From assembly GCA_903854195.1 (NCBI GenBank), contig CAINVO010000003.1, positions 1 to 41,362 on the forward strand: a stretch of DNA of 41,362 bases, read 5' to 3'. Every line of letters starts with the position of its first letter. The stretch's first letter is position 1. The position numbers and the translations under genes were made by a program. The notes beneath the pieces were generated by a model. The model was not told the DNA's origin. It did no database searches and was given only the letters and a program-made list of their open reading frames with translations. Below are positions 19,590 through 33,738 of the stretch, piece by piece. This DNA is from an uncultured bacterium. GTDB taxonomy: Bacteria > Patescibacteriota > Minisyncoccia > Phycocordibacterales > CAINVO01.

Positions 19590-19626
19590 AACACCCTCTC
19601 CATTTCAGAGAAGGTGTTGTTTTTTA
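19590..19626. terminator. Bidirectional intrinsic terminator
   Basis: AACACC.CTCTC and GAGA.AGGTGTT (19590-19617) pair around a CATTTCA loop, followed by a T-run on + and an A-rich flank on the other side. It serves two convergent genes. Confidence 0.75.
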
Positions 19627-19923: not shown

Positions 19924-19931
19924 CGCCTCCT

Positions 19932-20475: not shown

Positions 20476-20550
20476 CCTCAATTTTGAAATGCATTCTTCG
20501 TCTGTCTCCGAAGGGATACCCTGTGTATAAATTGCGGCCTTGATTGTTAG

Positions 20551-20964: not shown

Positions 20965-20968
20965 AGGG

Positions 20969-21042
20969 TATGCAGGGTGGGCAATGAACCGCACATCTTC
21001 TTACGTATAAGGTAAGCGCTTTGTCATTTAAGCTACCCGCAT
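20969..21042 (-). tRNA. tRNA-Ile(UAU)-like sequence, T-arm degenerate
   Basis: Read on minus from 21042: acceptor ATGCGGG pairs fully with CCTGCAT (20970-20976, one G-T wobble); D-stem GCTT/AAGC has loop AAATGACA; anticodon stem CTTAC/GTAAG carries the 7-base loop CTTATAC, which places T33, anticodon TAT (codon AUA, Ile) and A37 correctly. The variable region is AAGAT. The T-arm (GTGCGGTTCATTGCCCAC) has TTC but only partial pairing, and the D-loop lacks G19. CCA is not encoded (ACCC follows). The total is 74 bases. It ends 5 bases before the editing-domain ATG. It could be a divergent working tRNA, a tRNA mimic or a decayed gene. Confidence 0.55.
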
Positions 21043-21049
21043 AGTTTTA

Positions 21050-21079
21050 ATATTACACTAGATCAATACTTGGTCGCAA
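21050..21079 (-). promoter_or_regulatory. Promoter for the tRNA-like / editing-domain unit
   Basis: On the minus strand TTGCGA (21074-21079) and TAATAT (21050-21055) are 18 bases apart. The -10 box ends 7 bases before the first base of the tRNA-like sequence, so the RNA would start almost exactly at the acceptor 5' end. Confidence 0.45.
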
Positions 21080-21124
21080 GTTAGTAAAAAAACTTATGTG
21101 GTATACAAATGCGCACGGATCGCA

Positions 21125-22006
21125 TCAATTATACCATGTAAAGAAATCATCCAGTTCGTGCTCTGAGGCGAAGCAAAAGAGGGAAGTGGCACGGCCATTT
21201 TCGGCTTCATTGCAAATTTTCTTGATCCCCTCCATTCGCTTTTTAGCGGGAGAAATGAAAATTACTTGAAAGCCGGGGATGTCGTATCGGTCTCTCAAGA
21301 TTTTGCCCCTGCGGGTTTGGCTATACGCGAGTGCCTTCCGTCTGATAGATGAATGACGAAGGGTTTTCCGATGAAGCGGCATCGTGCCTCTGTCAACTTC
21401 AAGAAAGTAGTAAAAGCTTCGGATGCCCGTGTCAGTTATTGCCACAACTGAAAAGGTGGCATCGGGGATAACGCCGACTCTTTCACTGGTCTTTCCAGAT
21501 TTAATCGTGGTACGCCACTGGATACGATTGGATTTGCTTTCGTTTGGAAGTGAACCCAAAAGTTCCTCCTCACTCACAAACCGAAACCCGTGTCTGTTGC
21601 ACCCAGCCTTCAACGAAATGAGGGCACCCGAGACAGAGAGGGAATGTAAAAGAAAAAGGGAAGAAACTCGATTCCATACATTTCCAGAAGCCGTTCTTCC
21701 ACAACAATCCTCATCATGCCTGAATGATTTCCTGGTAGGGCAATACACCAATTCTGAAATTTGTCTGGCAAACCGTAATGGCATTTGAGCGGACGGGCGG
21801 TTAAGAAACCCGGAGTGATATAGTCGCTGCAAGCGTCGCGCAATATTTTGCCTGCTCCCAGGTATGAGAGAAAGGATGTGGCTGGTAGTGAGAAAGCGAT
21901 ACCGGCAGACAGCGGAAAGAATCTCCCGGTCACGGGTAGTCAAGCGGATACTCGGGAAATCCGATACGCGCTTAAAACGTGGCCTCCGGGCTACGTTTTT
22001 ATTCAT
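21125..22006 (-). CDS. Replication-relaxation family protein
   Basis: The 293-residue protein begins with a winged-helix domain of the Replic_Relax family (LTTRDREILSAVCRYRFLTT, SHILSLIPGS.QNIARRLQRL, YHSGFLNRP). The C-terminal part has the family's nuclease-like segment YYFLEVDRGTMPLHRK followed by SSIRRKALAYSQTRRGK. Such proteins are encoded on plasmids and integrative elements of Gram-positive and CPR bacteria and are linked to replication or mobilisation; the biochemical role is poorly known. It is expressed from a leaderless-type promoter and followed by the editing-domain unit on the same strand. Confidence 0.8.
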   Translation of the reverse strand: MNKNVARRPRFKRVSDFPSIRLTTRDREILSAVCRYRFLTTSHILSLIPGSRQNIARRLQRLYHSGFLNRPSAQMPLRFARQISELVYCPTRKSFRHDEDCCGRTASGNVWNRVSSLFLLHSLSVSGALISLKAGCNRHGFRFVSEEELLGSLPNESKSNRIQWRTTIKSGKTSERVGVIPDATFSVVAITDTGIRSFYYFLEVDRGTMPLHRKTLRHSSIRRKALAYSQTRRGKILRDRYDIPGFQVIFISPAKKRMEGIKKICNEAENGRATSLFCFASEHELDDFFTWYN

Positions 22007-22012
22007 CTCACA

Positions 22013-22021
22013 ATTATACCA
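22013..22021 (-). promoter_or_regulatory. Extended -10 promoter, leaderless start
   Basis: On minus, TGG-TATAAT (box 22013-22018) ends 6 bases before the ATG at 22006, exactly the spacing seen for mraY on the chromosome. Confidence 0.6.
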
Positions 22022-22073
22022 AATTTTATGGAGTGTAATTTGAAAAGCGCCAGATTTTCAAAATGGAAAAAAT

Positions 22074-22106
22074 AAGGACGCCTTTCGTTTGAGGGAAGGC
22101 GTCCTT
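22074..22106 (-). terminator. Intrinsic terminator of the small gene at 22134-22406
   Basis: A perfect 11-bp stem (AAGGACGCCTT/AAGGCGTCCTT) is followed on minus by TATTTTTTCC. It isolates the small gene from the replication-relaxation gene. Confidence 0.8.
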
Positions 22107-22133
22107 AATGTTTGGAAGGCTTAGGAATATCAT

Positions 22134-22406
22134 TTACATTCCATAAATAATGTAATCGTCATGCAAGCATTCGGGTGCTTTCACAGAGACTTTTCGGCTT
22201 TTATTTATCGCATAGATCACCTTGTCAATTTCTTCCCGCACCCATTGAATTTTGTTATAGGCGAGGTCGCTGGACATTATGTTATCCTCGTCTCGAAGCT
22301 GCCCACAGCATGACTCCACGCCTCCTAGGCTTTGCTTAATTCGAGACTGTTGCAATAAATACTCATCTGTGTTACACTGGTCTTTATCGATAGAGTTTAT
22401 TTTCAT
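22134..22406 (-). CDS. Hypothetical small helical protein
   Basis: The 90-residue protein (start MKINSIDKDQCNTDEYLLQQ) has several Cys residues and helical segments such as YNKIQWVREEIDKVIYAINK. No family is recognised. It forms its own transcription unit: a conserved hairpin element lies upstream (22415-22478) and a terminator downstream (22074-22106). The truncated gene at 16354-16584 shares this upstream element and a short similar segment, so the two may be paralogues. Confidence 0.5.
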   Translation of the reverse strand: MKINSIDKDQCNTDEYLLQQSRIKQSLGGVESCCGQLRDEDNIMSSDLAYNKIQWVREEIDKVIYAINKSRKVSVKAPECLHDDYIIYGM

Positions 22407-22414
22407 TGAGACAA

Positions 22415-22478
22415 TTCTATTGAAGGGTTAATAGCTCCCCACGACTCTGCTGTTTACAGAGTCGTGGGATTTTTTTTT
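22415..22478. promoter_or_regulatory. Conserved leader or terminator hairpin, copy 2
   Basis: CTATTGAAGGGTTAATAGCT plus CCCC repeats the element at 16591. It is followed by a 12-bp stem (CCCACGACTCTG/CAGAGTCGTGGG) and a run of nine T on +. Read on minus, the hairpin precedes GGGGAGCTATTAACCC and the gene start at 22406; read on +, it is a strong terminator for RNA coming out of the gene's antisense strand. Confidence 0.6.
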
Positions 22479-22790
22479 GGATAAATATCGGCAGTCGCAA
22501 GGGATTAAGGTCCCTTAACTATCAGAGTTGTATTACAAGCTGCCGGAATCCTATTTGAGAAATCCAAGCATAATTCACATATGAGACTGTGAAGGGATTA
22601 AGCTTGGAGAAGGAATTATGTTTCGTCGGTTTTTTATGCTCCAACAGAGTTGGATCATGCGGTGGGTGACGAGGCCGCTCTTTTATAATTGAGCCCGCTA
22701 CTGCCTCAAATATGAATACTGTCGAAAAAACATCAAGGATTATACTTTCTGCCTAAAATGCGAATTCATTTGCGGTATTACTTAATTTTA
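22479..22790. other. Intergenic stretch with short repeats
   Basis: No gene is supported. It contains the short inverted repeat AAGGGATTAAGGTCCCTT (22499-22516), and AAGGGATTAAG recurs at about 22592-22602. AAGCATAATT and AAGCTTGGAG flank the second copy. The 3' end of the coupling ATPase lies on its right side. Confidence 0.35.
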
Positions 22791-24089
22791 TTATCTTCCT
22801 TGCTCCCTCCATTTCTCCATCCACCTCTCAATTTTCTCTTCCACTTTCCTCCGCTCCGCGCAATATCGCTCTCGCGATGCGGCGATGATCGCATCCCTCG
22901 CGCCAGTTCGCTCTGAATCATCAAGTTCCGTTCTTCCCCGAAACGGTTGAATGCGTCCGTCAATCGGGCTTGGCTTCACCAGAATGTGGAATTTCTCAAG
23001 ATCGACAAACTGGCTCGCTGAAAACGCCTCCCCAAATTCTTTTGCCATGATCTCCGCATCCGGTGATCCAAGCTGAAAGGCAATCGTAGTGCCGACGTTT
23101 CCAAAAACAGCATCGCGAATCTCCGGATCAACCTGGCTCGTGAATTGGTGAGAGAGCACAAGTAAAAGCCGAAATTTCCGGGCTTCAGACAAAATCGAGG
23201 CGAAGGCCGTTGTCGAGTACGATTGGAATTCGTCGATGATCAGGGTAAAGTCGCGTCGCGACGACTCTGGCTCCGCACCCCGACGCATGGCGGCGTGTTG
23301 AAATTCCGAAACCAGAAGGGAACCGATCAGATTGGATGGCCCCTCACCGAGGGCACCTTTTGAGAGGTTGGCAATAAAAATACGGCCATGATCCATAATG
23401 AAGGGAATATCGAGTTTGCATTTCACCTGGCCTAAAATGTTCCGAAGAGCGGGGTTGGTGGCGAGCGGGGCAACCTTGTTCAGTACCGGGGAAATCACCT
23501 CTTGTCGAAACCGTTGATCGTAATTCTCAAATTCCATTTCCCAAAATGCTTTTACGAACGGGTCTTTGATCTGGCGCACTACCCACGCCCGGTATGCGTC
23601 ATCAGTCAGCATTTTTGGCAGTCCTAAAATACTTGTGTGCTCGGCATCAAGGAGAGCCCGCACCGAATTCAGCAGAACGTATTCCAAACGGGGACCCCAT
23701 GAATCTCCCCAAACATTTTTGAATGCGGAAACGATACCGGATGCTGTGCGCGGGCGTTCGTCAAAGGGAACATTGGCAAGAATATTCCAAGCGATGGGGA
23801 AGGATAGATCGCCAGGATTCAAATACACGACACGTGATGCCAGGCGCGAAGGCAATAAATCTAGAAGTTCCTCAGCCACGTCGCCGTGTGGATCGAGAAT
23901 TGCAACGCCATGCCCCTCCTCTGCCAATTGCAGGAAAATACTCCGAAGAAGACTTGTCTTCCCGGTGCCACTCTTTCCGATGCAATACAGGTGCCGACGT
24001 AGACCCTCCTCGGAAATATGAAATGGGGCTTCGACACCGCCCCAGCCCTGGCGCAAGCCAAGGCGAATGTGGAAATGAATATCGGACAT
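22791..24089 (-). CDS. TraD/VirD4-like coupling ATPase
   Basis: The 432-residue protein is a type IV coupling protein of the compact CPR/Gram-positive kind without N-terminal membrane segments. It has Walker A GKSGTGKT (residues 38-45), LDPHGD just after it, Walker B FTLIIDEFQS and the TraM-recognition-type segment LLLVLSHQFTSQVDPEIRDA followed by GNVGTTIAFQLGSPDAE. The long form VirD4 would be about 600 residues with a membrane anchor. It probably pumps element DNA to a transfer channel or drives DNA processing. GGAGG lies 14 bases before ATG 24089. Confidence 0.88.
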   Translation of the reverse strand: MSDIHFHIRLGLRQGWGGVEAPFHISEEGLRRHLYCIGKSGTGKTSLLRSIFLQLAEEGHGVAILDPHGDVAEELLDLLPSRLASRVVYLNPGDLSFPIAWNILANVPFDERPRTASGIVSAFKNVWGDSWGPRLEYVLLNSVRALLDAEHTSILGLPKMLTDDAYRAWVVRQIKDPFVKAFWEMEFENYDQRFRQEVISPVLNKVAPLATNPALRNILGQVKCKLDIPFIMDHGRIFIANLSKGALGEGPSNLIGSLLVSEFQHAAMRRGAEPESSRRDFTLIIDEFQSYSTTAFASILSEARKFRLLLVLSHQFTSQVDPEIRDAVFGNVGTTIAFQLGSPDAEIMAKEFGEAFSASQFVDLEKFHILVKPSPIDGRIQPFRGRTELDDSERTGARDAIIAASRERYCAERRKVEEKIERWMEKWREQGR

Positions 24090-24090
24090 A

Positions 24091-24210
24091 TTTCAGAGAC
24101 AGCCTCCATTCCGAAACTTTCCGCGCCACCCTTGATATGCACAGAAAAGTAAAGCTACCGACATGCGGATTGTTTTCGAGTCGGGAAGGTAATCGAAACT
24201 GTCTCTGAAA
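24091..24210. repeat. 12-bp inverted repeat upstream of the coupling ATPase
   Basis: TTTCAGAGACAG (24091-24102) and its exact complement CTGTCTCTGAAA (24199-24210) enclose 96 bases. Shorter CGAAAC motifs lie next to both arms. It abuts the start codon of the coupling ATPase. Possible roles are oriT or an operator for the nearby XRE protein; neither is shown by sequence alone. Confidence 0.5.
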
Positions 24211-24296
24211 CCCGAAAGCCCTATGCCTTCGGTGACAAGTCCACCTATATTATACCGCGAAGGTCGGTATCAGCGCGAAAATGTGAGGATCAAGGA

Positions 24297-24554
24297 TTAC
24301 GATTTTCCGCACTTGGCCTTCTTCATCGCATCCTTCAGGATTTTGCTGAGATCAATTTCCAGTGCCTCGGTGATGCGAAGAAGGGTATCAATGGTAGGAA
24401 GCCTCTCTCGTTTCTCTACGCGCATCACCATTGTGCGGCTGAGTCCGGAGCGCGTGCCGATTTCGTTCAATGAGAGCTTCTGGCGAAGTCGGGCTGCCTG
24501 AATCATCTGAACCAGATGCGTAATGGTTGCTTCGCGTTCGGAATTTTTCGGCAC
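24297..24554 (-). CDS. XRE-family transcriptional regulator
   Basis: An 85-residue helix-turn-helix protein: IQAARLRQKLSLNEIGTRSG, LSRTMVMRVEKRERLPTIDT and LLRITEALEIDLSKIL form the five-helix XRE/Cro fold. It likely represses a nearby unit of the element. AAAGGAGGTG lies right at the annotated GTG start (24554), almost overlapping it, so the true start may be slightly downstream; the next in-frame ATG is at residue 17, which would cut into the first helix. Confidence 0.85.
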   Translation of the reverse strand: MPKNSEREATITHLVQMIQAARLRQKLSLNEIGTRSGLSRTMVMRVEKRERLPTIDTLLRITEALEIDLSKILKDAMKKAKCGKS

Positions 24555-24893
24555 ACCTCCTTTTACGCAGAAATTTCCTTGCTTGCGGATATGACTATAG
24601 GCACTCTTTGCGCATGATCACCTGACGCATCCATCCTGATCCGCAGGCAAAGTCTGCCATATCCTCATAACTTCGAACCCGCCCACCCGATATTCTAGAA
24701 ATCGGCGGGGGATGGGGAGTCCCATCAACACCGGTATTGATGGCTGAAAATATGCGTTCCTGACACGCCAAGGCACCCCCTTGTGCAAAAAGCTTTTGTA
24801 TGATACAATGTAGCTAGGTGTGTGACATGTGACTGACGCTTTCGCGTCACGAACAAATATGGATTTTTGAAAATCAAAGAAAGGAAAACAAAA
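24555..24893. other. Intergenic stretch with promoter for the PEP-CTERM gene
   Basis: A promoter on + is visible: TTGTGC (24781-24786), 17 bases, TACAAT (24804-24809). A small hairpin (TGACGC-TTTC-GCGTCA, about 24834-24849) lies in the leader. Around 24680-24720 there are GC-rich short inverted motifs (CGATATTCTAGAAATCG). No gene is supported. Confidence 0.5.
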
Positions 24894-25616
24894 GTGAAAA
24901 ATAAAAGCAATTGTATTATTGCAGTAATCTTTGTCGCGTTCATCGCGGCACTGTTGCCCTCTCCGGTAAACGGACAGGGAGCGAGCGGTACGGCAACGTA
25001 CATCACGCATGATCAGTGGAGTTCCTTAGGAGGATTGGGAAATTTCACGGGTTTCGCGGCGGATGTTAACGGTGATTCAAGTATTGGTATTATGGGAATC
25101 GGCGCTCCCAATAATTTCAATCTTGGACCCAATCCAACAACCTGGGATCCGTTTTGGAATCAAACCTTAAACTACTCAATCACTCGTGATGAGACAGCAA
25201 AATATACATTCACGATTTCAAGTGGGGTGGTTCCAATCGCGTCGGGGACCTATAGTGCAACCAGTACTTTCAATGCATTGGTTGTTATGGCCGCGACACA
25301 CCCATTATTTGGTTTTGTGTCGTTAACGAACATCACGATCAATGGCATTTCGGTGCCAAATTCTGATATAGTTACAGATTCAAGTACCTCATTCCAAGCT
25401 GTGACCATTCCGATTTCTTCTGATAATTTTACCAGCTTCACGGCTCAATATGAGCCGGGGAGTTACAATTTTCTTGGAACAAATCCAACCACGACCGCGA
25501 CTATTCTTGTGGTATCTGGGGCAAATATCGAAGTTGTGCCGGAACCAAGCACGGTCATGCTCATGGTCGGTGGACTCGCCCTCATCGCTTCGCTGAAGCG
25601 GAAAAATGGGAAGTGA
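24894..25616 (+). CDS. Secreted PEP-CTERM sorting-domain protein
   Basis: From GTG 24894 (GAAAGG 9 bases upstream) the protein is 240 residues: a signal peptide (SNCIIAVIFVAFIAALLPS...NGQG), a Thr/Ser/Asn-rich beta body, and the C-terminal sorting signal VPEPSTVMLMVGGLALIASL followed by KRKNGK. PEP-CTERM proteins are cut and anchored by exosortase and are typical of Verrucomicrobia, Planctomycetes and some Proteobacteria. No exosortase is in the window. An in-frame TTG at 24867 is less likely. The gene probably entered the element from such a donor. Confidence 0.85.
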   Translation: MKNKSNCIIAVIFVAFIAALLPSPVNGQGASGTATYITHDQWSSLGGLGNFTGFAADVNGDSSIGIMGIGAPNNFNLGPNPTTWDPFWNQTLNYSITRDETAKYTFTISSGVVPIASGTYSATSTFNALVVMAATHPLFGFVSLTNITINGISVPNSDIVTDSSTSFQAVTIPISSDNFTSFTAQYEPGSYNFLGTNPTTTATILVVSGANIEVVPEPSTVMLMVGGLALIASLKRKNGK

Positions 25617-25634
25617 CTTCATCACAAAAACACG

Positions 25635-25673
25635 CAGCCGGATCTTTAGGAAACTAAAGTCCGGCTGTTTTTT
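25635..25673 (+). terminator. Intrinsic terminator after the PEP-CTERM gene
   Basis: CAGCCGGA.CTTTAG and CTAAAG.TCCGGCTG (25635-25667) form a long stem with a GAAA loop, followed by a T-run. It lies between convergent genes. Confidence 0.8.
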
Positions 25674-26286
25674 ATGGATAATAGCATTCGGTAAGAAATG
25701 GAGGAATGTTCAATTTAAAGCTGCCTCCTCCGCAATTTTGATTAATTCCATCCATATACCAAGTTAGTTGGTAGCCATCAATAGTGCTCCCGTAACAAGA
25801 GCCGGTTCCTGATGTGCATATAGAATATCCTAATCCATGCATTGTACTTGCCCCATTAGACAAAGGGTCAGTCATGCCGGGAGAACCAGGTAAATATTTT
25901 GTTTTCAACAAATTGGTTAAAGCAGTGCTTCCAGTATAGAACCCAAGACACGAGTCTGCATCAGATTCACCAACACAATAATAATTGCCAGCGATTCCAG
26001 TCCCATAATTTGGGTAAGCGCCATTGTCGCTTTTATATAATTCCAAGGCATTGGCATATTGCTTCACAAGCTGCAAGCGCTTCGCATTCTGCGCTCTGAT
26101 CCGCGCCTGAGAAAGGCTCGCCAAAATAATGACGGAAAGAAAGGCGATGATCGTAATCACTACCATGAGTTCGATTAGTGTGAAACCCGAATGAAAACCG
26201 ACGCGCGTAGCGACGACTTTTGTATGAGCGATTTTATTTATCGGAGTTGGGAATTCTCTGTGTTGATCGCTCATATATATTTTCAT
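25672..26286 (-). CDS. Type IV pilin-like protein (pseudopilin)
   Basis: The 204-residue protein has a leader ending in HSGFTLIELMVVITIIAFLS: prepilin peptidase cuts after Gly, Phe becomes N-terminal and Glu5 is present. The hydrophobic helix continues as VIILASLSQARIRAQNAKRL, then a Gly/Ser/Cys-rich globular part follows with six or more Cys residues. CPR cells use such pili for attachment and DNA uptake. A second pilin of the same type is on the chromosome at 34027-34617. The leader before the cleavage site is long (about 34 residues), so an internal start is possible. Confidence 0.88.
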   Translation of the reverse strand: MKIYMSDQHREFPTPINKIAHTKVVATRVGFHSGFTLIELMVVITIIAFLSVIILASLSQARIRAQNAKRLQLVKQYANALELYKSDNGAYPNYGTGIAGNYYCVGESDADSCLGFYTGSTALTNLLKTKYLPGSPGMTDPLSNGASTMHGLGYSICTSGTGSCYGSTIDGYQLTWYMDGINQNCGGGSFKLNIPPFLTECYYP

Positions 26287-26296
26287 ATTTGCGATT

Positions 26297-26596
26297 TTAT
26301 TTGTAGAGGCCTTGTCTCAGGCCGTCGGCATATTGCTCGACGGTTATCACCTGGCCATTCCTTAGAATCACCCGATGATCTAAATATTCCATTCTATACA
26401 TGAACAGGGCTACGATTGCATAGCAGGCGAAGATAGTTCCATAGATAACAAGCATTGCCTGCTTTTCGGTTTTCACAATTTTGTAGTTGAGCAAAAGTTT
26501 TGCAAATCTTGGAGTGGTAGGTTCACCAAGATGAAAGAAGTGAATTTTACGAGAAAGAAAATGAAATCTGTTACCATCTGATTTTCCTTTTTCCAT
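26297..26596 (-). CDS. Single-pass membrane protein, hypothetical
   Basis: The 99-residue protein has one membrane segment (about 47-66, AMLVIYGTIFACYAIVALFM) and a short outer domain EYLDHRVILRNGQVITVEQY. No family is recognised. It is read just upstream of the pilin gene with a 10-base gap, suggesting a joint transcript. An extended -10 box (TGG-TAAAAT, 26603-26608 on minus) ends 6 bases before ATG 26596, so the message would be leaderless. Confidence 0.6.
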   Translation of the reverse strand: MEKGKSDGNRFHFLSRKIHFFHLGEPTTPRFAKLLLNYKIVKTEKQAMLVIYGTIFACYAIVALFMYRMEYLDHRVILRNGQVITVEQYADGLRQGLYK

Positions 26597-26775
26597 GTCT
26601 CCATTTTACCAGAGTTAAAGGGAAATAGAAAACGGGGTGGTGTGGAGAGAGTGGGTGTGGATTGTTCGAATGCGATGCGAGCTAGTTGCGTCGGTGCTAA
26701 TAGTGTGTTACACTCGCAATTGGGATTCTTAGAGGTTAGCCAAACTCAATAATAGCACCATAAAAGGAGGTGAAA

Positions 26776-27024
26776 ATGAAAAAGCAAGATAGATACATGC
26801 CGAACCCGAATTTCGGGGGACGTAAAGAGCGAGACGGATTTGTCTGCTCATCCATCACAAGGAAGACATGCCTTGGACAAAATTGCGTCGCAGTGAAACA
26901 GGATGCCACTGGTATCCATATCCGCGACACGAAGGATGGAAGAGACACAACCCTCTCCTTCAATAAGGGAGAGTGGAATGCCTTCGTTGAAGGCGTCAAG
27001 AAGGGAGAGTTCGATCTCCGTTAA
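26776..27024 (+). CDS. DUF397-domain protein
   Basis: The 82-residue protein ends IHIRDTKDGRDTTLSFNKGE followed by WNAFVEGVKKGEFDL, almost the DUF397 consensus V.VRDSKDP....L.F...EW.AFL.GVK.GEFD, and has SSITRKTCLGQNCVAVKQ matching the SS.......CVEVA part. DUF397 proteins are otherwise best known from Actinobacteria beside XRE regulators. A near-perfect AAAGGAGGTG ends 4 bases before ATG 26776, which decides the start over GTG 26770. A partial, deleted copy of the gene's 3' end is at 29405-29450. Confidence 0.8.
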   Translation: MKKQDRYMPNPNFGGRKERDGFVCSSITRKTCLGQNCVAVKQDATGIHIRDTKDGRDTTLSFNKGEWNAFVEGVKKGEFDLR

Positions 27025-27031
27025 CACACGA

Positions 27032-27066
27032 AAGGGGGCGGGTCCAATCCCTACCCCCTTTTTTTT
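27032..27066 (+). terminator. Intrinsic terminator between DUF397 and hydrolase genes
   Basis: AAGGGGG.GGG and CCC.CCCCCTT pair around TCCAATC, followed by eight T. It stops only 6 bases before the hydrolase ATG (27073). The same arrangement recurs at 29451-29480. Confidence 0.75.
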
Positions 27067-27072
27067 AATATT

Positions 27073-27543
27073 ATGAAAAAATTTATCGCACTAGATGCAA
27101 ATGAATACAATTTAAAAAAGGGTATAATCCCAGTGTCTCTGTCATGGAAAACCAAAACTATAAAAGGCTGGTGCGATCAGGTTAAGATGACAAAAGAGGA
27201 TATTATCATAGGCCACTCGATAGGCGGAGCTGTTGCGCTTATGGTTGCAAGTAAAACTCCACCAAAGGAGTTACATCTATATTCTCCCACTCCTATATTT
27301 TTCGAGTTTTTAGAGTTGTATAAAAAATACCCTGATAAAAATAAAAAGGATCGTTTCAAGGAATTCGTTCGCATCCCAAATGTTAAATGCCCAGTGTTCA
27401 TTTATATAGGAGGGGACGAAGATCCATTTATGAAAGTCGGTGCTCAAATCATCGCAAGATCAATTAAAAATTCAGTTCTTAAAACAATAAAAGGGAAGGA
27501 TCACATGAGTGTTATTCCTAGTTCGATAGCAACTATCCGTTAA
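27073..27543 (+). CDS. Alpha/beta hydrolase (copy 1)
   Basis: This 156-residue single-domain hydrolase has the nucleophile elbow GHSIGG (Ser49) in DIIIGHSIGGAVALMVAS, a likely acid in YIGGDEDPFM (about 114-117) and the catalytic His in KGKDHMSVIP (H144). Short RBBP9-type or thioesterase-like hydrolases have this size. There is no signal peptide, so it is cytoplasmic. It is very similar to the hydrolase at 29486-29959, nearly identical at DNA level around the nucleophile. It starts 6 bases after a terminator T-run, so its expression depends on read-through or on a promoter I cannot see. Confidence 0.8.
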   Translation: MKKFIALDANEYNLKKGIIPVSLSWKTKTIKGWCDQVKMTKEDIIIGHSIGGAVALMVASKTPPKELHLYSPTPIFFEFLELYKKYPDKNKKDRFKEFVRIPNVKCPVFIYIGGDEDPFMKVGAQIIARSIKNSVLKTIKGKDHMSVIPSSIATIR

Positions 27544-27687
27544 TAATATTACGTTGATAAAACGGATTATGTTTTCGTGTAAATTCACTTACTTAAGAAA
27601 ATATTCGGATAATGCTACAATAAATTCATTCTGCCAAAACGAATTTACGAATTAGATATAAAAGCGGAAATCTCGACGACACTAGAC

Positions 27688-28350
27688 GTGGCGGGTTTTT
27701 TTCTATTGAAAAAAGAAGTAGGAGAAAAACATGTGCTGTACAAACAGTTTAATGAGAATCGCGATTCTGTATTGATGCAAACAAATCCAGACGCCCATAC
27801 CGACAAGGCTTACATCGAAAAAGTGGTCGAACAAAAATATAGGACCGATACGGCTATAGAAGTTGCGCAAGATAGTGTATCGAAAAAACTCCATCAAATA
27901 CTCCGAGAATTTTTGATGGAATCTTCCGTCTTATTTTTAAACCAAAAGATATGCCATTTTGATAGGATCACGGTCTATCCGACAATCTGGGGTGTGGGTA
28001 TCCAAAACATGAAAGAGAATGCGGTTTCATACCCAATCTCCAAAAACAATACTGACGAAATGATTTATGTAGTTCTTCACGAACTAATGCACACATTCTT
28101 TTTTTGCTATTTAAATACGAATTGCTCGGTAAAGCTTGAACCTGATAGTGGTTGCGATTCGTGGAATATGTCAGAAGTTTTCAATACTATTGTTCTGAAT
28201 TCCCCAGTGTTCCGAAAATTCTATCCAAAATTCGTACCAGTTAATTATCCAGAACATAATGAAATCCTAAACACCATCCGAGGGCAGATAGGGAATGGGC
28301 CATTAGACATTGCAGTGTTTCTCAATGCCTATAGTAAAATATTAAATTAG
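27688..28350 (+). CDS. HExxH metalloprotease-like protein 1
   Basis: The 220-residue protein contains MIYVVLHELMHTFFF, a zinc-binding HExxH motif, and 28 residues later SWNMSEVFNTIVLNSP, where Glu is a likely third ligand (gluzincin-like arrangement). The family is not recognised. It is paralogous to the next gene and to a remnant at 29961-29999. No signal peptide is seen. GTG 27688 is taken as start; TTG 27706 is the alternative. TACAAT at about 27619-27624 could be its promoter. Confidence 0.65.
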   Translation: MAGFFLLKKEVGEKHVLYKQFNENRDSVLMQTNPDAHTDKAYIEKVVEQKYRTDTAIEVAQDSVSKKLHQILREFLMESSVLFLNQKICHFDRITVYPTIWGVGIQNMKENAVSYPISKNNTDEMIYVVLHELMHTFFFCYLNTNCSVKLEPDSGCDSWNMSEVFNTIVLNSPVFRKFYPKFVPVNYPEHNEILNTIRGQIGNGPLDIAVFLNAYSKILN

Positions 28351-28364
28351 ACCTAGCAGGCATC

Positions 28365-29018
28365 ATGCTCATAAAAATAAACAAACAATTAGATAAGGAG
28401 GTCTATTTAGCATTTTATGATGGGGTTGTTGGAGGTACAGATTTTGGTAAAATAATCAAAGACACCCACCCAACAATCACGAAGGAAAATTACAGCGAAT
28501 ATATTGATAATTATTACGCGGAGAATGCTGAGGAGTTACAGTCCATATTGATCGAGACCCAACAGTGTTTTGCTGATATTAAGGACGCCCTATTTTCTCA
28601 ATTACAAAAATATTTCGAATTCGATTTCATCAACGAAGATTACACTTGCAACCTCTCAATTTTTAATTGCAACCCACGATATATCGAAACAAAAACTTTT
28701 CAGGTATTTTACCGAAGGCGGTATGATTTAAGGAAAGAGGTTATTGCCCATGAGTTAACGCATTTTGCTTTTTATGATTTCTGTTTCAGTCTTGGTATAA
28801 AAGATAGTGGGGAACTGTGGGAGCTATCGGAAATCTTTAATGTTATTATTCTAAATTTGGAACCTCTCCGTAGCGCAATCGGTGACGAGGAGCTTTTGTT
28901 CTATCCAGATCTCAAAGAAAAACTGAACGCCATCAGGTTGATTTGGGATGAAGAAACGGGGATCAAGGAATTTATCCTACATAGTTTGGAAGTTTTAAAA
29001 GGGTCACACGACAAATAG
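28365..29018 (+). CDS. HExxH metalloprotease-like protein 2
   Basis: The 217-residue protein has EVIAHELTHFAFYDF (HExxH) and LWELSEIFNVIILNLEP, with the same SExFNxIxLN motif as its neighbour 14 bases upstream. The two differ strongly in the N-terminal 130 residues, where this one has many Glu, Asp and Tyr, so they may act on different substrates or form a heterodimer. Function is unknown. It is transcribed with protein 1. Confidence 0.65.
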   Translation: MLIKINKQLDKEVYLAFYDGVVGGTDFGKIIKDTHPTITKENYSEYIDNYYAENAEELQSILIETQQCFADIKDALFSQLQKYFEFDFINEDYTCNLSIFNCNPRYIETKTFQVFYRRRYDLRKEVIAHELTHFAFYDFCFSLGIKDSGELWELSEIFNVIILNLEPLRSAIGDEELLFYPDLKEKLNAIRLIWDEETGIKEFILHSLEVLKGSHDK

Positions 29019-29107
29019 GATGGTTGTATTTCAATAGGGTTACTTTTTTCTTCCATAGGTGAATACTGAATACGTCTGTGATACAATCAATCCAGACGTT
29101 ATCTATT

Positions 29108-29392
29108 ATGGTGAAAATTGTTGAAAAGCAAAAGTTTCCCATGGGAGAATTGCTCATAACATCTAGCGCAACATCATCACTGCCCGGAAAGGAACTGATT
29201 GCGTCACTCGCACGTCATTTGTGCGGTGACTGGGGCGATGTCGATGAAGATACGCGGAACAGAAACGAAATGGCCTTGCGGAATAATGAAAGATTGTTTT
29301 CACAATTCCGAACAAGACAGGGGATTACGTTTCAAATTATCACAACGCGCGGACGCTCAGCAACGGCAATAATGCTGCCAGAAGATGAGTAA
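29108..29392 (+). CDS. Plasmid-related protein, GDWGDV family (copy 2)
   Basis: From ATG 29108 the 94-residue protein has LARHLCGDWGDVDEDTRNRN, FRTRQGITFQIITTRGRS and ends ATAIMLPEDE. It is a paralogue of 19624-19923. GTG 29078 would add ten residues but overlaps the TACAAT box at 29082-29087 that probably drives the gene. It stands alone here, without RadC. Confidence 0.65.
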   Translation: MVKIVEKQKFPMGELLITSSATSSLPGKELIASLARHLCGDWGDVDEDTRNRNEMALRNNERLFSQFRTRQGITFQIITTRGRSATAIMLPEDE

Positions 29393-29404
29393 ATATTCCA
29401 CGAA

Positions 29405-29480
29405 CTCTCCTTCAACAAGGGAGAGTTCGATCTCCGTTTACACACGAAAGGAGGCGGGTTCAATCCCCACCTCTTTTTTT
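29405..29480 (+). pseudogene. Remnant of a second DUF397 gene 3' end with its terminator
   Basis: The 46 bases at 29405-29450 copy the 3' end of the DUF397 gene (26953-27032), except that 36 bases between two AAGGGAGAG repeats (26965-26973 and 27001-27009) are missing. The downstream terminator (29451-29480) is conserved too. It is the front end of a duplicated DUF397-hydrolase block. Confidence 0.75.
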
Positions 29481-29485
29481 ATAAT

Positions 29486-29959
29486 ATGAAAAAATTCATC
29501 GCCTTAGACGCAAATAAATACAAATTAAAAATGGGCATAGTTCCTGTCTCTTTGACATGGAAGACCAAGACGATACAAGGTTGGTGTGATCAAGTGGAAA
29601 TGACAAAAGAGGATATTATCATAGGTCACTCGATAGGCGGAGCTGTTGCGCTTATCGTTGCAAGTAGAACACCTCCAAAAGAGTTACATCTATATGCCCC
29701 CACTCCTATTTTCACAGAGTTTTTAGAATCATTTAAAAAACATGCAAGTCGGCAACTGAAAAGTAGAGTCAAAGAACTTAAATCTATTCCCAAAGTGTCA
29801 TGCCCAGTTTTTATTTATATCGGTGACAAAGAGCATCCGATAATGATAGCCGACGTAAAAACAATATCGAAACATATTCCTGGCTCCGTCTTTAAATTGA
29901 TAAAAGGGGCTGATCATATGACCGTCATTCCTAATTCAATTGCAACTATCGACAATTGA
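29486..29959 (+). CDS. Alpha/beta hydrolase (copy 2)
   Basis: The 157-residue protein is a paralogue of 27073-27543, with the same start MKKFIALDAN, nucleophile GHSIGG and KGADHMTVIP with the catalytic His. The middle (residues about 80-130) has diverged, including the acid region, now YIGDKEHPIM. Retention of the catalytic Ser and His while the flanking genes of the same block have decayed suggests selection for this enzyme. Confidence 0.8.
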   Translation: MKKFIALDANKYKLKMGIVPVSLTWKTKTIQGWCDQVEMTKEDIIIGHSIGGAVALIVASRTPPKELHLYAPTPIFTEFLESFKKHASRQLKSRVKELKSIPKVSCPVFIYIGDKEHPIMIADVKTISKHIPGSVFKLIKGADHMTVIPNSIATIDN

Positions 29960-29960
29960 T

Positions 29961-29999
29961 TTTGCCGATGAAATTATTTTTGTAGTTTTGCACGAGTTG
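29961..29999 (+). pseudogene. Remnant of a third HExxH protein gene
   Basis: Right after the hydrolase stop the DNA encodes ADEIIFVVLHEL, matching TDEMIYVVLHEL of the 27688 gene around its zinc motif. Beyond 29999 the similarity ends in GC-rich DNA. It is the tail end of the duplicated block. Confidence 0.65.
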
Positions 30000-30470
30000 A
30001 AACCCCTCGTTCGCGCCTCCGGCAATTGCCGGTGGCGCGATAACAAAATAGTTGTGGTGGCAGGTCTGCCCACCCCCCTTTGATTTTGCGGAGGGCAAGG
30101 AATGCAGTCTCGAAGCAAAGGCAAAGCGTGTGTGCGGCGGGGGAGAGAGCCCCGTCGTTCCGCGACAGAGGAGTGGAAGTAGTTACAAACTAGTTCCCCA
30201 GGTGTCGGTCCCGGCCTTGCGGGCCGACTTTCTCCAGTTTTGGTGTCGCCTGTCCGATAGGTCAAGGACAACACCCGGTTAGCCGAAGGAGAACTGGAGA
30301 AAGTCGGGCCGCAAGGCCGACACCTGGGAATTAGTTTTACCCTTGCCTTGCAAGGGTTTTCCGTCGTCATGGAGGCAATTGCCTCTACATACATAGTTTG
30401 TAGGGGTTGGATGCCGGGGGAGGTTGGCTTATTACAGGCGGATTTTTCGTTTCTGCGTAACGATGGGACC
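30000..30470. repeat. Palindrome-rich intergenic region
   Basis: There are three kinds of structure. (1) A 30-bp palindrome with one mismatch pair at 30011-30040, centred on GGCAATTGCC. (2) A large imperfect inverted repeat: arms 30188-30239 and 30292-30336, about 45-52 bases each, loop 52 bases; each arm also folds by itself (GTCGG...CCGAC). (3) GAGGCAATTGCCTC at 30372-30385, again with GGCAATTGCC, and CCTTGCAAGG at 30346-30355. Open frames in this region are short and unlike known proteins. It may be an origin, a transfer region or the remains of a palindromic mobile repeat. Confidence 0.7.
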
Positions 30471-30473
30471 ATA

Positions 30474-30605
30474 TTGACAGCGTTAATAGATAGGGTACTA
30501 TTTAAAGCATCACCAATAGCACACTGTTTGTGCTAAGAAAAGTTGTGATGAGCTCATTGCGGAAATAGTTGGGTAGATCCCAACAACAATCAAATAGTTA
30601 GTTCT
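30474..30605 (+). promoter_or_regulatory. Promoter and structured leader of the graspetide locus
   Basis: A consensus TTGACA (30474-30479), 16 bases, and TACTAT (30496-30501) form the best sigma70-type promoter of the element. The leader of about 100 bases holds hairpins AGCACA/TGTGCT (30519-30535) and GTTGGG/CCCAAC (30569-30585). No Shine-Dalgarno sequence precedes ATG 30606. Confidence 0.6.
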
Positions 30606-30845
30606 ATGAAAACATCATCATTGCAAAATACTCGAATCGGTTCAAACCACCTGCGCGGCCAAATATCGCCATTTGCAGGCAGGTTTGCAAAAATAGTTCA
30701 TGCTTACCCTAACAATGTTAGGATTTATTCAGAGCGGAGCCAGACATCAAGAGGAAACCTCGATGTATTGCTCCACCCCGCACTCGCATCAAACACCACT
30801 TTTAACACAAATGGTGGAGACGCGGAGGGCGACGAATCGATTTAA
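30606..30845 (+). CDS. Probable graspetide (microviridin-like) precursor peptide
   Basis: The 79-residue peptide lies just before an MvdC/MvdD-type ATP-grasp ligase. Residues 22-27 read PFAGRF, which resembles the leader-helix motif PFFARFL bound by microviridin ligases (established for microviridins). The C-terminal part, residues 64-78, is TTFNTNGGDAEGDES: Thr/Ser on the left and Asp/Glu on the right, the composition needed for side-chain ester or amide rings (T64, T65, T68 with D72, E74, D76, E77). Precursor role is inferred from motif, core and neighbour. An HPr-like fold was considered (HLR at 15-17) and judged less likely. Confidence 0.6.
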   Translation: MKTSSLQNTRIGSNHLRGQISPFAGRFAKIVHAYPNNVRIYSERSQTSRGNLDVLLHPALASNTTFNTNGGDAEGDESI

Positions 30846-30867
30846 CATTTTGGTGCAGCCCAAACAA

Positions 30868-30902
30868 TGAGGGGGAGACAAACTCTCCCCCTCATTTTTT
30901 TT
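30868..30902 (+). terminator. Terminator or attenuator between precursor and ligase
   Basis: A perfect 11-bp stem TGAGGGGGAGA/TCTCCCCCTCA with loop CAAAC and eight T follows the precursor stop. It would give much precursor mRNA and little ligase by read-through, a common arrangement in RiPP operons. Confidence 0.85.
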
Positions 30903-30917
30903 AAACGATGATCTATT

Positions 30918-31868
30918 ATGATTCTTATTGTTACAAATAAAGAAGATGGACATGCTGATATTGTCATTAGGAGATTGAAGTCTCTTGATGCCGAGTTTTT
31001 CAGATTAAATACTGATAGTTTGCATAACTATTTAGTATCAATTCAGAAACAGGGAAGTTTTCTAAAAAACAGCAAGACTGGTCGCACCATCAAACTGTCT
31101 TCGATCAAAAGTATTTGGCTTAGAAGACGAACTGCACTAAAACTGCCTGAACTTAATGCAGATTTTCGACTATTCGTTGAAAGTGAATGGAGTCACTTCC
31201 TTAGAAATCTCTGGATGCAGTTCGACGATGTATTATGGATGAATCATCCAGAAGCCATAGAAAATGGCAGAAACAAAATGGCTCAACTGCGAATAGCTGA
31301 AAAGATCGGCTTTCAAGTCCCTGAAACCATTTATTCCAATTCTGCCAAAGAAATCATGGCTTTTCAAAAAAAGCATGGTTGTTGCATCTACAAACCACAT
31401 GACGGGTGGTCATTTGGTAGTAAGAAAAAACGGGCGGTATTTACGTCAATTATTGGAGAGCCCGTCACGCTTGAAATGGCTGAAGAATTAGCAGTCTGCC
31501 CGGGGATATTTCAACCATACGTGCGCAAACTGTACGAGCTCCGTATTACGGTTGTTGCAAATGAAGTATTTGCAACAAAAATTGATTCCCAAGCGAGTCA
31601 GAAAGCGAGAACTGATTGGAGAACTGAAGATTATACAAAGCTCCATCATGAGGAGTATCAATTAAGTCCGTCAGATCGAAAAAACTGTCTTGAAATGGCA
31701 AGCAAACTAAATTTAAAATTTGCTGCTATTGATGCGATAGTTACTCCTCAAAACCAACTCGTGTTTTTAGAAATCAATTGTAACGGTCAGCGGGCATGGA
31801 TTGAGGCAATGACGAAACAGCCAATATCTGCAGCAATTGCAAAATGCCTAATTGGAGGTAAATATTAA
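30918..31868 (+). CDS. MvdC/MvdD-family ATP-grasp ligase (graspetide macrocyclase)
   Basis: The 316-residue protein matches graspetide ligases over its whole length: N-terminal domain with the hallmark SIWLRRR (W67, R69, R70), LWMNHPEAIENGRNKMAQLR (about 106-125; Lys120 of the pre-ATP-grasp/ATP-binding region), IAEKIGFQVPETIYSNS, IYKPHDGWSFG, and the Mg-binding end FLEINCNGQRAW (about 285-297). The family uses ATP to join Thr/Ser hydroxyl or Lys amine side chains to Asp/Glu carboxylates in a precursor peptide. The small RiPP partner is directly upstream. No N-acetyltransferase or second ligase is present. RimK-type ligase is the alternative reading, but the IWxRR motif favours graspetide ligase. 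Confidence 0.85.
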   Translation: MILIVTNKEDGHADIVIRRLKSLDAEFFRLNTDSLHNYLVSIQKQGSFLKNSKTGRTIKLSSIKSIWLRRRTALKLPELNADFRLFVESEWSHFLRNLWMQFDDVLWMNHPEAIENGRNKMAQLRIAEKIGFQVPETIYSNSAKEIMAFQKKHGCCIYKPHDGWSFGSKKKRAVFTSIIGEPVTLEMAEELAVCPGIFQPYVRKLYELRITVVANEVFATKIDSQASQKARTDWRTEDYTKLHHEEYQLSPSDRKNCLEMASKLNLKFAAIDAIVTPQNQLVFLEINCNGQRAWIEAMTKQPISAAIAKCLIGGKY

Positions 31869-31874
31869 ACAATT

Positions 31875-31920
31875 CAGCCGCGCCTTGAAATTCAATGAAT
31901 TTCCTGGTGCGGCTTTTTTA
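31875..31920 (+). terminator. Terminator after the ATP-grasp ligase
   Basis: AGCCGC.CC and GG.GCGGCT enclose a second stem GAAATTC/GAATTTC (31875-31913), followed by TTTTTTA. It ends the graspetide unit. Confidence 0.85.
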
Positions 31921-31935
31921 TGTTAGAATCACGGC

Positions 31936-32412
31936 ATAAATAAGAAGTTGTTAACCATCTTCAATAAGGACCAAAAAGATCGTGAAGATTCGCTTATTTG
32001 TAATGATGGAAAATTACTCACAAAAAACGATGTTGCCCGAAAAAAAATAGTACGTGAATTTATTCGTAAAAATGACCTTTCGTCTGCTGAAGATTATTTC
32101 ATGGCGGGAATGATTTTTCATCATGGGAGAAGCATTCGAGATTCGACTACGGCGGTTAGACTATTAAAGAAAAGTCATGAGATGGAGTTTCCTAAGGCGT
32201 TAGCGTTATATGCCATGTGCCTAGATCGTTTGCTTATCAAGCAAGGACATAAGCAAAAATTCGGGACCCAATATCGAAGGAAGCATTCTAAAAGCGAATG
32301 GATAATATTACCTATTGATTCAAGTACTACCGATACAGAAAGGAAAAAATACAACATTCTTCCTTTAAAGAAATTAATTGCTAATGTTAAGAAGCTGAAT
32401 AGTAAAAAGTAA
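31936..32412 (+). CDS. DUF6624-like protein, possible AUA start
   Basis: The protein has the DUF6624 pattern: DYFMAGMIFHHGRSIRD, ALALYAMCLDRLLIKQGHKQ, KFGTQYRR and PIDSSTTDTERKKYNILPLK. Function of the family is unknown. TTG 31948 gives 154 residues. An extended -10 box (TGT-TAGAAT, 31924-31929) ends exactly 6 bases before ATA 31936, which is in frame (INKKLLTIF); this is the spacing of the leaderless ATG genes, so either AUA is used or an ATG has mutated. The gene lies between the graspetide ligase and the integrase. Confidence 0.7.
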   Translation: MNKKLLTIFNKDQKDREDSLICNDGKLLTKNDVARKKIVREFIRKNDLSSAEDYFMAGMIFHHGRSIRDSTTAVRLLKKSHEMEFPKALALYAMCLDRLLIKQGHKQKFGTQYRRKHSKSEWIILPIDSSTTDTERKKYNILPLKKLIANVKKLNSKK

Positions 32413-32466
32413 ATGTATGTGGCTGTACATTTGCATCTTTTCGTGTCTTGCGATACAGTACGGGCC

Positions 32467-32489
32467 GACAGGTTAGTGCGCAACCTGTC
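32467..32489. repeat. Perfect 8-bp inverted repeat upstream of the integrase
   Basis: GACAGGTT and AACCTGTC with a 7-base loop (AGTGCGC) lie 93 bases before the integrase ATG. It could be an operator or a terminator without T-run. Confidence 0.4.
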
Positions 32490-32581
32490 AAGGTTGTCTT
32501 GTCTGAGTTAGAGGTTCAAAAAATTTTTGTTTCCAACTAAATTCAGGTGAGACGTTCATTACAAGTCTAATCAAGACACAC

Positions 32582-33547
32582 ATGAAAACGATGTTACATC
32601 GTTGGTGGCTGGATGCGGCCCATAAATATAATGCGATCGCACCAGCTAGAGCCAACACAAACGAAGCCTTAGTCGATGAGTACATTGCGTGGAAAAAATC
32701 CTATTCAAAATCTGCGCATAAAGTATATCGACCTTGGGTAAGGCGGTTTCAGGCATTTGTAAACAAGCCGCCGGAAAAGGTAACGCATGGCGATTATGTA
32801 GCATTTGCAGAAAGTTTACAGGGGAGTCATGCACCCCGTGGAATCGAATTTGCGTTAAATGTGGTGCATAATTTTCTCAGATATTTTTCAGAACAGGGGA
32901 GACTCAATGTTCCTCTGTATCTGATCCGTGTGCCAAAAGGGGCGTCTAATTCCCACTCGGCAATTACCGAAGAAGAGTATCAAAAGATTATCACTGTCAT
33001 GCATTCTATGAACCCGGTTCCCTTGCGAGATCTCGCCATTATCATGCTTCTTCACGATACGGGACTTCGTATCGGAGAAATGATGAGCCTTGAAATCGAT
33101 TCCATTGAAGAGGACAATTCAGCGGTGGTGCGTACCGAAAAAACAATCCGCCTCCGTCGGGTTTATTGGAATCCAGAAACCGATGCAGTTCTGCATAGAT
33201 ATTTAGTGGAACGAATTAATGTCGGGCCTGAAGATACCGAATTTCTTTTCGCCACCAAACGCATGAACGCAAAGAGTGGAAGTCTGAGCAGCCGATCAGT
33301 TCAAAGAAGTTTTCAACGCATTCTCAGCCTCGCAGGCATCAACCGAAAACTATGTCCGCATTCATTCAGACATAGCTTCATCCAGCGACTGGCAAAGCTC
33401 GGCGTGCCAGATGCGATCATTTCTCAGCTTGTTGGGCACAGCACTCCGCTGACAATCTCGCATTATACAAAACTCAGCCGACCGGAACTTGCAGGAATTG
33501 CGCGGAGACAACTGGCATATGCACAAACCGGCGGACTGGCGGCATAA
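32582..33547 (+). CDS. Tyrosine recombinase / integrase (XerC/D-like)
   Basis: The 321-residue protein has an N-terminal SAM-like core-binding domain (YIAWKKSYSKSAHKVYRPWV) and a catalytic domain with the full set of residues: Arg in DTGLRIGEMMSLE (about 162), Lys in VRTEKTIRLRRV (about 186), HSFRHSF (about 260-266), GHSTP and the nucleophile Tyr in SHYTKLSRPE (about 295). It integrates and excises the element; attR is 167 bases past its stop. Size and order match XerC/XerD and short phage integrases. No excisionase gene is recognised. Confidence 0.92.
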   Translation: MKTMLHRWWLDAAHKYNAIAPARANTNEALVDEYIAWKKSYSKSAHKVYRPWVRRFQAFVNKPPEKVTHGDYVAFAESLQGSHAPRGIEFALNVVHNFLRYFSEQGRLNVPLYLIRVPKGASNSHSAITEEEYQKIITVMHSMNPVPLRDLAIIMLLHDTGLRIGEMMSLEIDSIEEDNSAVVRTEKTIRLRRVYWNPETDAVLHRYLVERINVGPEDTEFLFATKRMNAKSGSLSSRSVQRSFQRILSLAGINRKLCPHSFRHSFIQRLAKLGVPDAIISQLVGHSTPLTISHYTKLSRPELAGIARRQLAYAQTGGLAA

Positions 33548-33714
33548 GGCAAAAATTTAAATACAAAGTTCATTTAGTTATCCACAACAATGAGGCACTT
33601 GTCGAAAAATATTGGGTCATGTATACTATAGGCAGCGATCTTCGAAAGGAAACAAATACACGGCCAGCCTCTATAGGAATAACCCCGCAATTCAAATGCG
33701 GGTTATAAAATGAC
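33548..33714. other. Integrase-to-attR spacer
   Basis: It holds a perfect DnaA-box-like TTATCCACA (33578-33586), a TATACT promoter-like box (about 33620), and a hairpin AACCCCGCA/TGCGGGTT (about 33680-33703). Such elements could include a directionality-factor site. No coding region is supported. Confidence 0.4.
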
Positions 33715-33738
33715 ATTATAGTGTCGCAAAAGATATAT
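33715..33738. repeat. Right attachment site (attR), with dif-like palindrome
   Basis: This is the 24-bp repeat identical to 15108-15131. Here the core continues into the chromosomal flank as TGTCGCA (33722-33728), 12 bases, TGCGACA (33741-33747), a near-symmetric tyrosine-recombinase site. On the complementary strand its centre reads CGCACAATATATCTTTTG, which matches E. coli dif at 14 of 18 central positions. Confidence 0.8.

What the first reader, a model, noticed from the sequence alone, without database searches (positions are those of the whole stretch)
30474..31920. Two-gene graspetide (microviridin-like RiPP) locus in a CPR mobile element
Seen: an ATP-grasp protein with SIWLRRR, WMNHP and an LEINCNG metal end directly follows a 79-residue gene whose residues 22-27 are PFAGRF and whose C terminus is TTFNTNGGDAEGDES. 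They share a strong promoter and are separated by a perfect terminator hairpin. Known: microviridin ligases MvdC/MvdD bind a PFFARFL helix in the leader and link Thr/Ser/Lys side chains to Asp/Glu in the core. Inferred: this is a graspetide system with an uncommon single-ligase architecture and a core unlike the classical TxKxPSD microviridin core. A modified-peptide system on a mobile element of an ultra-small, host-dependent bacterium would be new to me.
Basis: partly seen in the sequence, partly recalled or inferred. Interest (0 to 1): 0.92.

Follow-up and report, generated by a model that had tools for sequence, protein, structure and literature searches.

The report
Graspetide gene cluster on mobile element
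A tiny, probably host-dependent bacterium of the candidate phyla radiation carries, on an 18.6-kb integrated mobile element, genes that most likely make a ring-stitched peptide of the graspetide family; such clusters are already known from these bacteria, so this is a well-supported new member rather than a new kind of system.

Summary
A 79-aa precursor (30606-30845, PFAGRF leader helix, Thr/Asp/Glu-rich C terminus) is followed by a perfect terminator hairpin and a 316-aa ATP-grasp enzyme (30918-31868). By profile, tree and predicted fold (top PDB matches MdnC-MdnA, CdnC, AMdnB, PruB, MdnB, PsnB) the enzyme is a graspetide synthetase, not RimK. The nearest relative, in a Parcubacterium (47% identity), has the same order and a homologous precursor in which S62, T64, T68, D72, D76 and E77 are all conserved, giving a core T-x3-T-x2-G-D-x2-G-D-E. 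The locus is larger than stated. A DUF6624-like gene follows the ligase; this partner recurs at 16 of 34 CPR graspetide ligases. Two zincin metallopeptidases and two alpha/beta hydrolases lie upstream. The cluster is cargo at the integrase end of an 18.6-kb element bounded by 24-bp perfect repeats (15108-15131, 33715-33738). Graspetides in CPR (Makarova 2022) and DUF6624 co-occurrence (Carter 2026) are published, so this is a new member of a known kind. The additions are a defined mobile-element setting in CPR, a precursor pair that fixes the core, and a recurrent stem-loop behind the precursor. Chemistry, export and target are inferred, not shown.

The parts
15108..15131 (+). left att-like direct repeat ATTATAGTGTCGCAAAAGATATAT
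   Evidence: 24-bp perfect repeat; only two copies in the genome even with 3 mismatches
33715..33738 (+). right att-like direct repeat, 168 nt behind the integrase gene
15108..33714 (.). integrated mobile element (18.6 kb), GC 0.443 against 0.37 in both flanks
   Evidence: Replic_Relax and TrwB/HerA-like ATPase genes inside
32582..33547 (+). tyrosine recombinase/integrase, 321 aa
   Evidence: Pfam PF00589 101 bits; PHROG integrase
30606..30845 (+). graspetide precursor, 79 aa: leader helix PFAGRF (22-27), core region about 58-78 with conserved S62, T64, T68, D72, D76, E77
30866..30902 (+). stem-loop plus T run between precursor and ligase (terminator / expression step-down)
30918..31868 (+). 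graspetide synthetase (ATP-grasp macrocyclase), 316 aa; K159, R209, D233-W-R235, D272, E285, N287 present
31948..32412 (+). DUF6624-like partner protein, 154 aa (TTG start), divergent subfamily with FGTQ motif, H59, D93-R94, R132
29486..29959 (+). alpha/beta-hydrolase-like gene, 157 aa; possible accessory gene (homologue directly upstream of a Zambryskibacteria ligase, L070)
27073..27543 (+). tandem duplicate of the alpha/beta-hydrolase gene
28365..29018 (+). zincin-like metallopeptidase (HELTH); candidate leader peptidase; homologue directly upstream of a Woesebacteria graspetide pair (L094)
   Evidence: E 2.5e-16 to L094
27688..28350 (+). zincin-like metallopeptidase (HELMH), paralogue of the former
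   Evidence: E 3.2e-13 to L094
30474..30501 (+). promoter-like box TTGACA-16-TACTAT upstream of the precursor
   Evidence: not above chance frequency

Best explanation
This is a graspetide (omega-ester/amide-linked RiPP) gene cluster carried as cargo by an integrative mobile element in a Parcubacteria-type CPR bacterium. The precursor is transcribed in excess; the stem-loop behind it lets only part of transcription reach the synthetase (inferred). The leader helix PFAGRF docks on the ATP-grasp synthetase (inferred from the MdnC/CdnC family). The synthetase phosphorylates the side-chain carboxylates of D72, D76 and/or E77, and the hydroxyls of T64, T68 and perhaps S62 attack them, giving two or three macrolactones at the C terminus with loss of 18 Da each (inferred). 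The DUF6624-like protein, a small helical-repeat (TPR/Sel1-like) fold, acts as an obligate or helper partner of synthetase or precursor (inferred from recurrent adjacency). As no C39 peptidase was found in the assembly, one of the two upstream zincins may remove the leader. The product probably serves in competition or interaction with other cells, as mobile-element cargo does elsewhere (speculative).
For: Synthetase: TIGR04187 214 bits, MvdC 199, MvdD 175 against RimK 44 (all below curated cut-offs); Pfam MvdD pre-ATP-grasp domain above cut-off; PDB hits CdnC, MdnC, AMdnB, MdnB; AF2 model pLDDT 91.7 whose 32 best PDB matches are all graspetide synthetases, best MdnC bound to its precursor (E 6.6e-29, TM 0.87), RimK only from E 2.7e-15. 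Catalytic residues conserved. Precursor: homologue in L025 scores 71 against shuffled mean 21.8, sd 3.9, 0 of 5000, with all candidate ring positions but T65 and E74 kept. Tree: window and L025 ligases pair with support 100/94. Partner: DUF6624-like gene beside 16 of 34 CPR ligases; the independent Pfam search for DUF6624 leads back to a ligase in 6 of 8 loci. Stem-loop behind the precursor in 7 of 11 CPR loci. Element. C39 absent in the 94%-complete genome.
Against: The close precursor family has only two known members, so the conservation test rests on one comparison. The ligase has two unusual residues in the metal-binding stretch (NCNGQR where most have NPNGQW), which could alter or reduce activity. 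All NCBIfam scores are below the curated cut-offs. No export gene was identified. L025 has a hairpin without a T run, so the terminator role is not general. The adjacency figure for DUF6624 uses an HMM seeded partly from these loci. No expression, chemistry or excision data exist.
Confidence: 0.88

Rival explanations
1. The ATP-grasp enzyme is a RimK/LysX-type amino-acid or peptide ligase that adds amino acids to a small acidic carrier protein, and the 79-aa protein is a carrier, not a RiPP precursor.
For: The ATP-grasp fold is shared; RimK-family models match weakly (44 bits) and RimK structures match the model at TM about 0.65-0.70; an acidic C terminus is also typical of LysW-type carriers.
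Against: Graspetide models score about five times higher; 32 graspetide synthetase chains rank before any RimK; the MvdD pre-ATP-grasp domain and DWR motif are present; the precursor has a PFxxxF helix as in microviridin leaders and conserved Thr as well as Asp/Glu.
Confidence: 0.03
2. The locus is a graspetide cluster, but the DUF6624-like gene, zincins and hydrolases are unrelated element cargo; the functional unit is precursor plus ligase only.
For: The DUF gene is on the opposite strand in several loci (L002, L016, L031, L081), is missing at about half of CPR ligases, and DUF6624 also occurs without a ligase nearby (L107, L113; Caulobacter). Zincins and hydrolases recur in only a few loci.
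Against: DUF6624 adjacency is far above chance in both directions (16 of 34 against about 0.0004 per 3 kb; 6 of 8 in reverse) and is independently reported for other graspetide groups (PMC13097080); Makarova 2022 lists zincins, alpha/beta hydrolases and the 'cluster 23' family at CPR loci.
Confidence: 0.3
3. A decaying remnant: the NCNGQR change, absence of a Shine-Dalgarno and rarity of the family mean the ligase no longer works.
For: Substitutions at P288 and W292, which most homologues keep; no Shine-Dalgarno seen in the sequence.
Against: All ATP- and metal-binding residues and the DWR motif are intact, the reading frames are full length, the AF2 model is confident, and the core residues of the precursor are kept at 38% overall identity.
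Confidence: 0.08

Closest known systems
CPR graspetide loci, branches 1 and 2 of Makarova et al. 2022 (PMC8939145)
   Same: CPR hosts, Phhx(1,2)h leader motif, TxxxT...D..D cores, single ATP-grasp ligase, associated 'cluster 23' protein of unknown function with conserved His and Arg, zincins and alpha/beta hydrolases nearby
   Different: This precursor family and its core (T-x3-T-x2-GD-x2-GDE) were not compared with their supplementary list, which is not held; the text read describes no mobile-element setting
Graspetide group 42 (DUF6624-associated, candidate phyla) of Carter et al. 2026 (PMC13097080)
   Same: DUF6624 co-occurrence, uncharacterised candidate phyla
   Different: The window's DUF gene is too divergent for the Pfam model; group assignment could not be tested
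Microviridin system MdnA/MdnB/MdnC
   Same: Ligase fold and active site, aromatic PFxxRF-type leader helix, C-terminal Thr/Asp/Glu core
   Different: One ligase instead of two, no TxKxPSD core, no acetyltransferase or C39 transporter seen in the locus
Chryseoviridin ligase CdnC (7mgv)
   Same: Best PDB sequence match (123 bits), ATP-grasp graspetide synthetase solved with leader and core peptide
   Different: About 30% identity; different precursor and organism
P2-like prophage graspetide pair in IMG/VR locus L106
   Same: Precursor plus ligase directly beside an integrase gene at the edge of a mobile element
   Different: Proteobacterial-type phage; no DUF6624 gene; ligase 29% identical

Membership tests
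graspetides (omega-ester/amide-containing RiPPs) | ATP-grasp synthetase of the MvdC/MvdD/PsnB lineage with pre-ATP-grasp domain and intact ATP/Mg site | tested here: met
graspetides (omega-ester/amide-containing RiPPs) | short precursor beside the synthetase with a leader helix (Phhx(1,2)h) | tested here: met
   PFAGRF at 22-27, 72 nt upstream of the ligase
graspetides (omega-ester/amide-containing RiPPs) | core with conserved hydroxyl donors and Asp/Glu acceptors | tested here: met
   S62, T64, T68, D72, D76, E77 conserved in the only close homologue; one comparison only
graspetides (omega-ester/amide-containing RiPPs) | side-chain ester or amide rings in the product | not testable with these tools
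   needs co-expression and MS/MS
microviridins proper (group 1) | TxKxPSD core | tested here: not met
   the core has no TxKxPSD
microviridins proper (group 1) | two ligases MvdC and MvdD | tested here: not met
   one ligase in the genome
RimK-type ligases | best match to RimK-family models or structures | tested here: not met
DUF6624 (PF20329) | 31948-32412 reaches the family's score cut-off | tested here: not met
   no Pfam match; but it aligns with clear members over its length, with the invariant residues kept, so it is a divergent relative
integrative mobile element | integrase gene and flanking direct repeats | tested here: met
   excision and an empty site not shown (the same-genus genome is broken there)

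The most novel reading that the evidence does not exclude
A mobile element of CPR bacteria spreads a graspetide weapon or signal whose synthetase depends on a DUF6624/TPR-like partner protein, and whose leader is removed by a dedicated zincin instead of a C39 transporter-peptidase, so that an ultra-small, host-dependent bacterium gains and loses peptide warfare by element exchange.
Probability: 0.2. Interest if true: 0.68.

Novelty: new member of a known kind. Interest (0 to 1): 0.42.

Why it matters
CPR bacteria make few known secondary metabolites and live on other cells, so a ring-stitched peptide on a moving element is a concrete, testable candidate for how they compete with each other or act on their hosts. 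The locus also offers a small, expressible set (precursor, ligase, DUF6624-like protein) to ask what DUF6624, a common but uncharacterised companion of graspetide synthetases, does.

Tried and rejected
Precursor homologues in viral contigs: none. A class-wide profile search with the precursor pair found only the genome of L025 again (by coordinates) and a chance match. DUF6624 relatives in PDB by sequence: none. Fold search of its confident model (pLDDT 94) gave only weak TPR/Sel1-like matches, none with E below 0.1, so no catalytic function can be read off. Empty integration site in the same-genus genome G380: contigs end in the neighbourhood. Defence-system library: no credible match. The large palindrome at 30197-30330 was considered as an integron attC site; it is single copy in the genome and no gene-cassette array was seen, so this was dropped. 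The stem-loop was first counted as 8 of 11 loci in my notes; the correct count is 7 of 11.

Full report
Observation. The two genes exist as described. The precursor is 30606-30845 (79 aa, PFAGRF at 22-27, C terminus TTFNTNGGDAEGDESI) and the ligase 30918-31868 (316 aa). Between them lies a 13-bp perfect stem with a T run. The promoter-like box at 30474 is real but not above chance frequency. Among 345 small ORFs in the window only this one combines a Phhx(1,2)h leader and a TxxxT..D..D tail.

Host. The genome is 814 kb in 45 contigs, 94% complete. The organism is therefore a Parcubacteria-type member of the CPR (Patescibacteria).

Ligase. Profiles put it with ATP-grasp RiPP maturases (TIGR04187 214 bits, MvdC 199, MvdD 175) and far from RimK (44), although below each curated cut-off. 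The MvdD pre-ATP-grasp domain is present. CdnC, MdnC, AMdnB and MdnB are the best solved relatives by sequence. The AF2 model (pLDDT 91.7) matches 32 graspetide-synthetase chains before the first non-graspetide ligase (ArgX, then RimK), with MdnC bound to MdnA first. Active-site residues are kept; NCNGQR in place of the usual NPNGQW is an oddity. In a 107-row tree the window ligase pairs with the Parcubacteria ligase L025 (100/94), then with a same-order CPR ligase, L017 (95/85).

Precursor. L025 (VMFQ01000004.1, Parcubacteria group bacterium Gr01-1014_33; ligase 47% identical) carries MVSGQLIPFVAGFIEEGSVEEGTEVPRSYSEDAQMGIWNEGDLLNPVYLSPTQLHTPRGDHIGDEA just upstream. It is homologous to the window precursor over its length (score 71 against shuffled 21.8, sd 3.9; 0 of 5000). 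P22, F23, F27 of the leader helix and S62, T64, T68, D72, D76, E77 of the core are identical; T65 and E74 are not. This predicts two or three ester rings. No third close homologue was found.

Other CPR loci. Upstream of more distant CPR ligases I found small peptides of the same design. Examples are PFGAKY...NTNTGTGTSQPDADHD (L008, L011), PFILLFLE...TTSGTWNDIDGADAA (L009), PFILGYLE...TTSGTPGDIDCFDET (L006), PFPLQFAEP...TTTSVETGTGGHGDTD (L028), PFAALFADF...(L094) and the conserved pair PLGILLSEE...PTSAWWTGGP (L016, L131). Some CPR ligases showed none that I could recognise. A strong stem-loop follows the precursor in 7 of 11 loci tested (window, L025, L006, L009, L017, L028, L094), with unrelated sequences and only sometimes a T run. 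It is absent in two pairs of near-identical loci. This fits a device that keeps precursor mRNA more abundant than ligase mRNA (inference).

Third gene. 31948-32412 is homologous to a gene beside the ligase in L025 and many other CPR loci. Clear members match Pfam DUF6624 (L070 91 bits, L016 86, L005 63); the window copy is a divergent relative that Pfam misses. A DUF6624-like gene lies beside 16 of 34 CPR ligases. Searching 98 relatives with the Pfam model alone led back to a ligase in 6 of 8 loci. The fold is predicted with confidence (pLDDT 94) and resembles TPR/Sel1 helical repeats only weakly. Invariant Gln, His, Asp-Arg, GTQ and Arg positions suggest a binding or catalytic site. A partner-protein role is likely, because partner-dependent graspetide synthetases have now been shown (MirB-MirC, PMC13097080), but it is untested.

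Upstream genes. On the same strand lie two paralogous zincin-like genes (27688-28350, 28365-29018), homologous to a gene directly upstream of the Woesebacteria pair in L094, and a duplicated alpha/beta-hydrolase gene (27073-27543, 29486-29959) with a homologue directly upstream of the Zambryskibacteria ligase L070. No C39 peptidase is found in the assembly, so a zincin is the best candidate for leader removal.

Mobile element. A 24-bp perfect direct repeat at 15108 and 33715 is present exactly twice in the genome. It encloses 18.6 kb with GC 0.443 against 0.37 outside, a tyrosine recombinase next to the right repeat, a replication-relaxation protein and a TrwB/HerA-like ATPase. The graspetide genes are directly beside the integrase. 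Graspetide ligases on phages and plasmids of other bacteria exist; L106 shows the same place beside an integrase. An empty site or circular form was not found.

Known or new. Makarova et al. 2022 reported CPR graspetide loci, the leader motif, TxxxT..D..D cores, zincins, hydrolases and the associated 'cluster 23' protein. Carter et al. 2026 reported groups from candidate phyla and frequent DUF6624. That 'cluster 23' is the DUF6624-like family is my inference from the conserved His and Arg. The locus is therefore a new member of a known kind. The additions are the defined element, the precursor pair, the stem-loop pattern and the reciprocal DUF6624 linkage in CPR.

Noticed in passing
window 26996-27327 and 29412-29740: Tandem duplication (84-87% identity) of an alpha/beta-hydrolase gene together with a leader of about 75 nt that contains a terminator-like hairpin, which suggests regulated read-through.
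   Followed up: partly
window 30197-30330: Large imperfect palindrome (141 nt folded as DNA, z -12.75) in the gap between hydrolase and precursor; single copy in the genome.
   Followed up: partly
window 20551-21043 (-): tRNA-Ile gene read with anticodon TAT beside a gene matching the threonyl-tRNA editing domain (PF08915), both inside the mobile element.
   Followed up: no
window 29078-29392 and 19627-19965 (-): Two copies of a gene of about 104 aa (GDWGD motif) within the same element.
   Followed up: no
L016 and L131: The DUF6624 gene sits on the opposite strand between the precursor (PLGILLSEE...PTSAWWTGGP) and the ligase.
   Followed up: partly
L106:5744-8169: P2-like prophage carrying a graspetide precursor and ligase directly beside its integrase.
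   Followed up: partly
L006:2426-3442: Two DUF6624-like genes, on opposite strands, beside one CPR ligase.
   Followed up: no
L105; KF114876.1:59120-60070: A graspetide-type ligase is annotated only as RimK-like in a Leptospira phage (LE1); some plasmid records also label such enzymes RimK.
   Followed up: no
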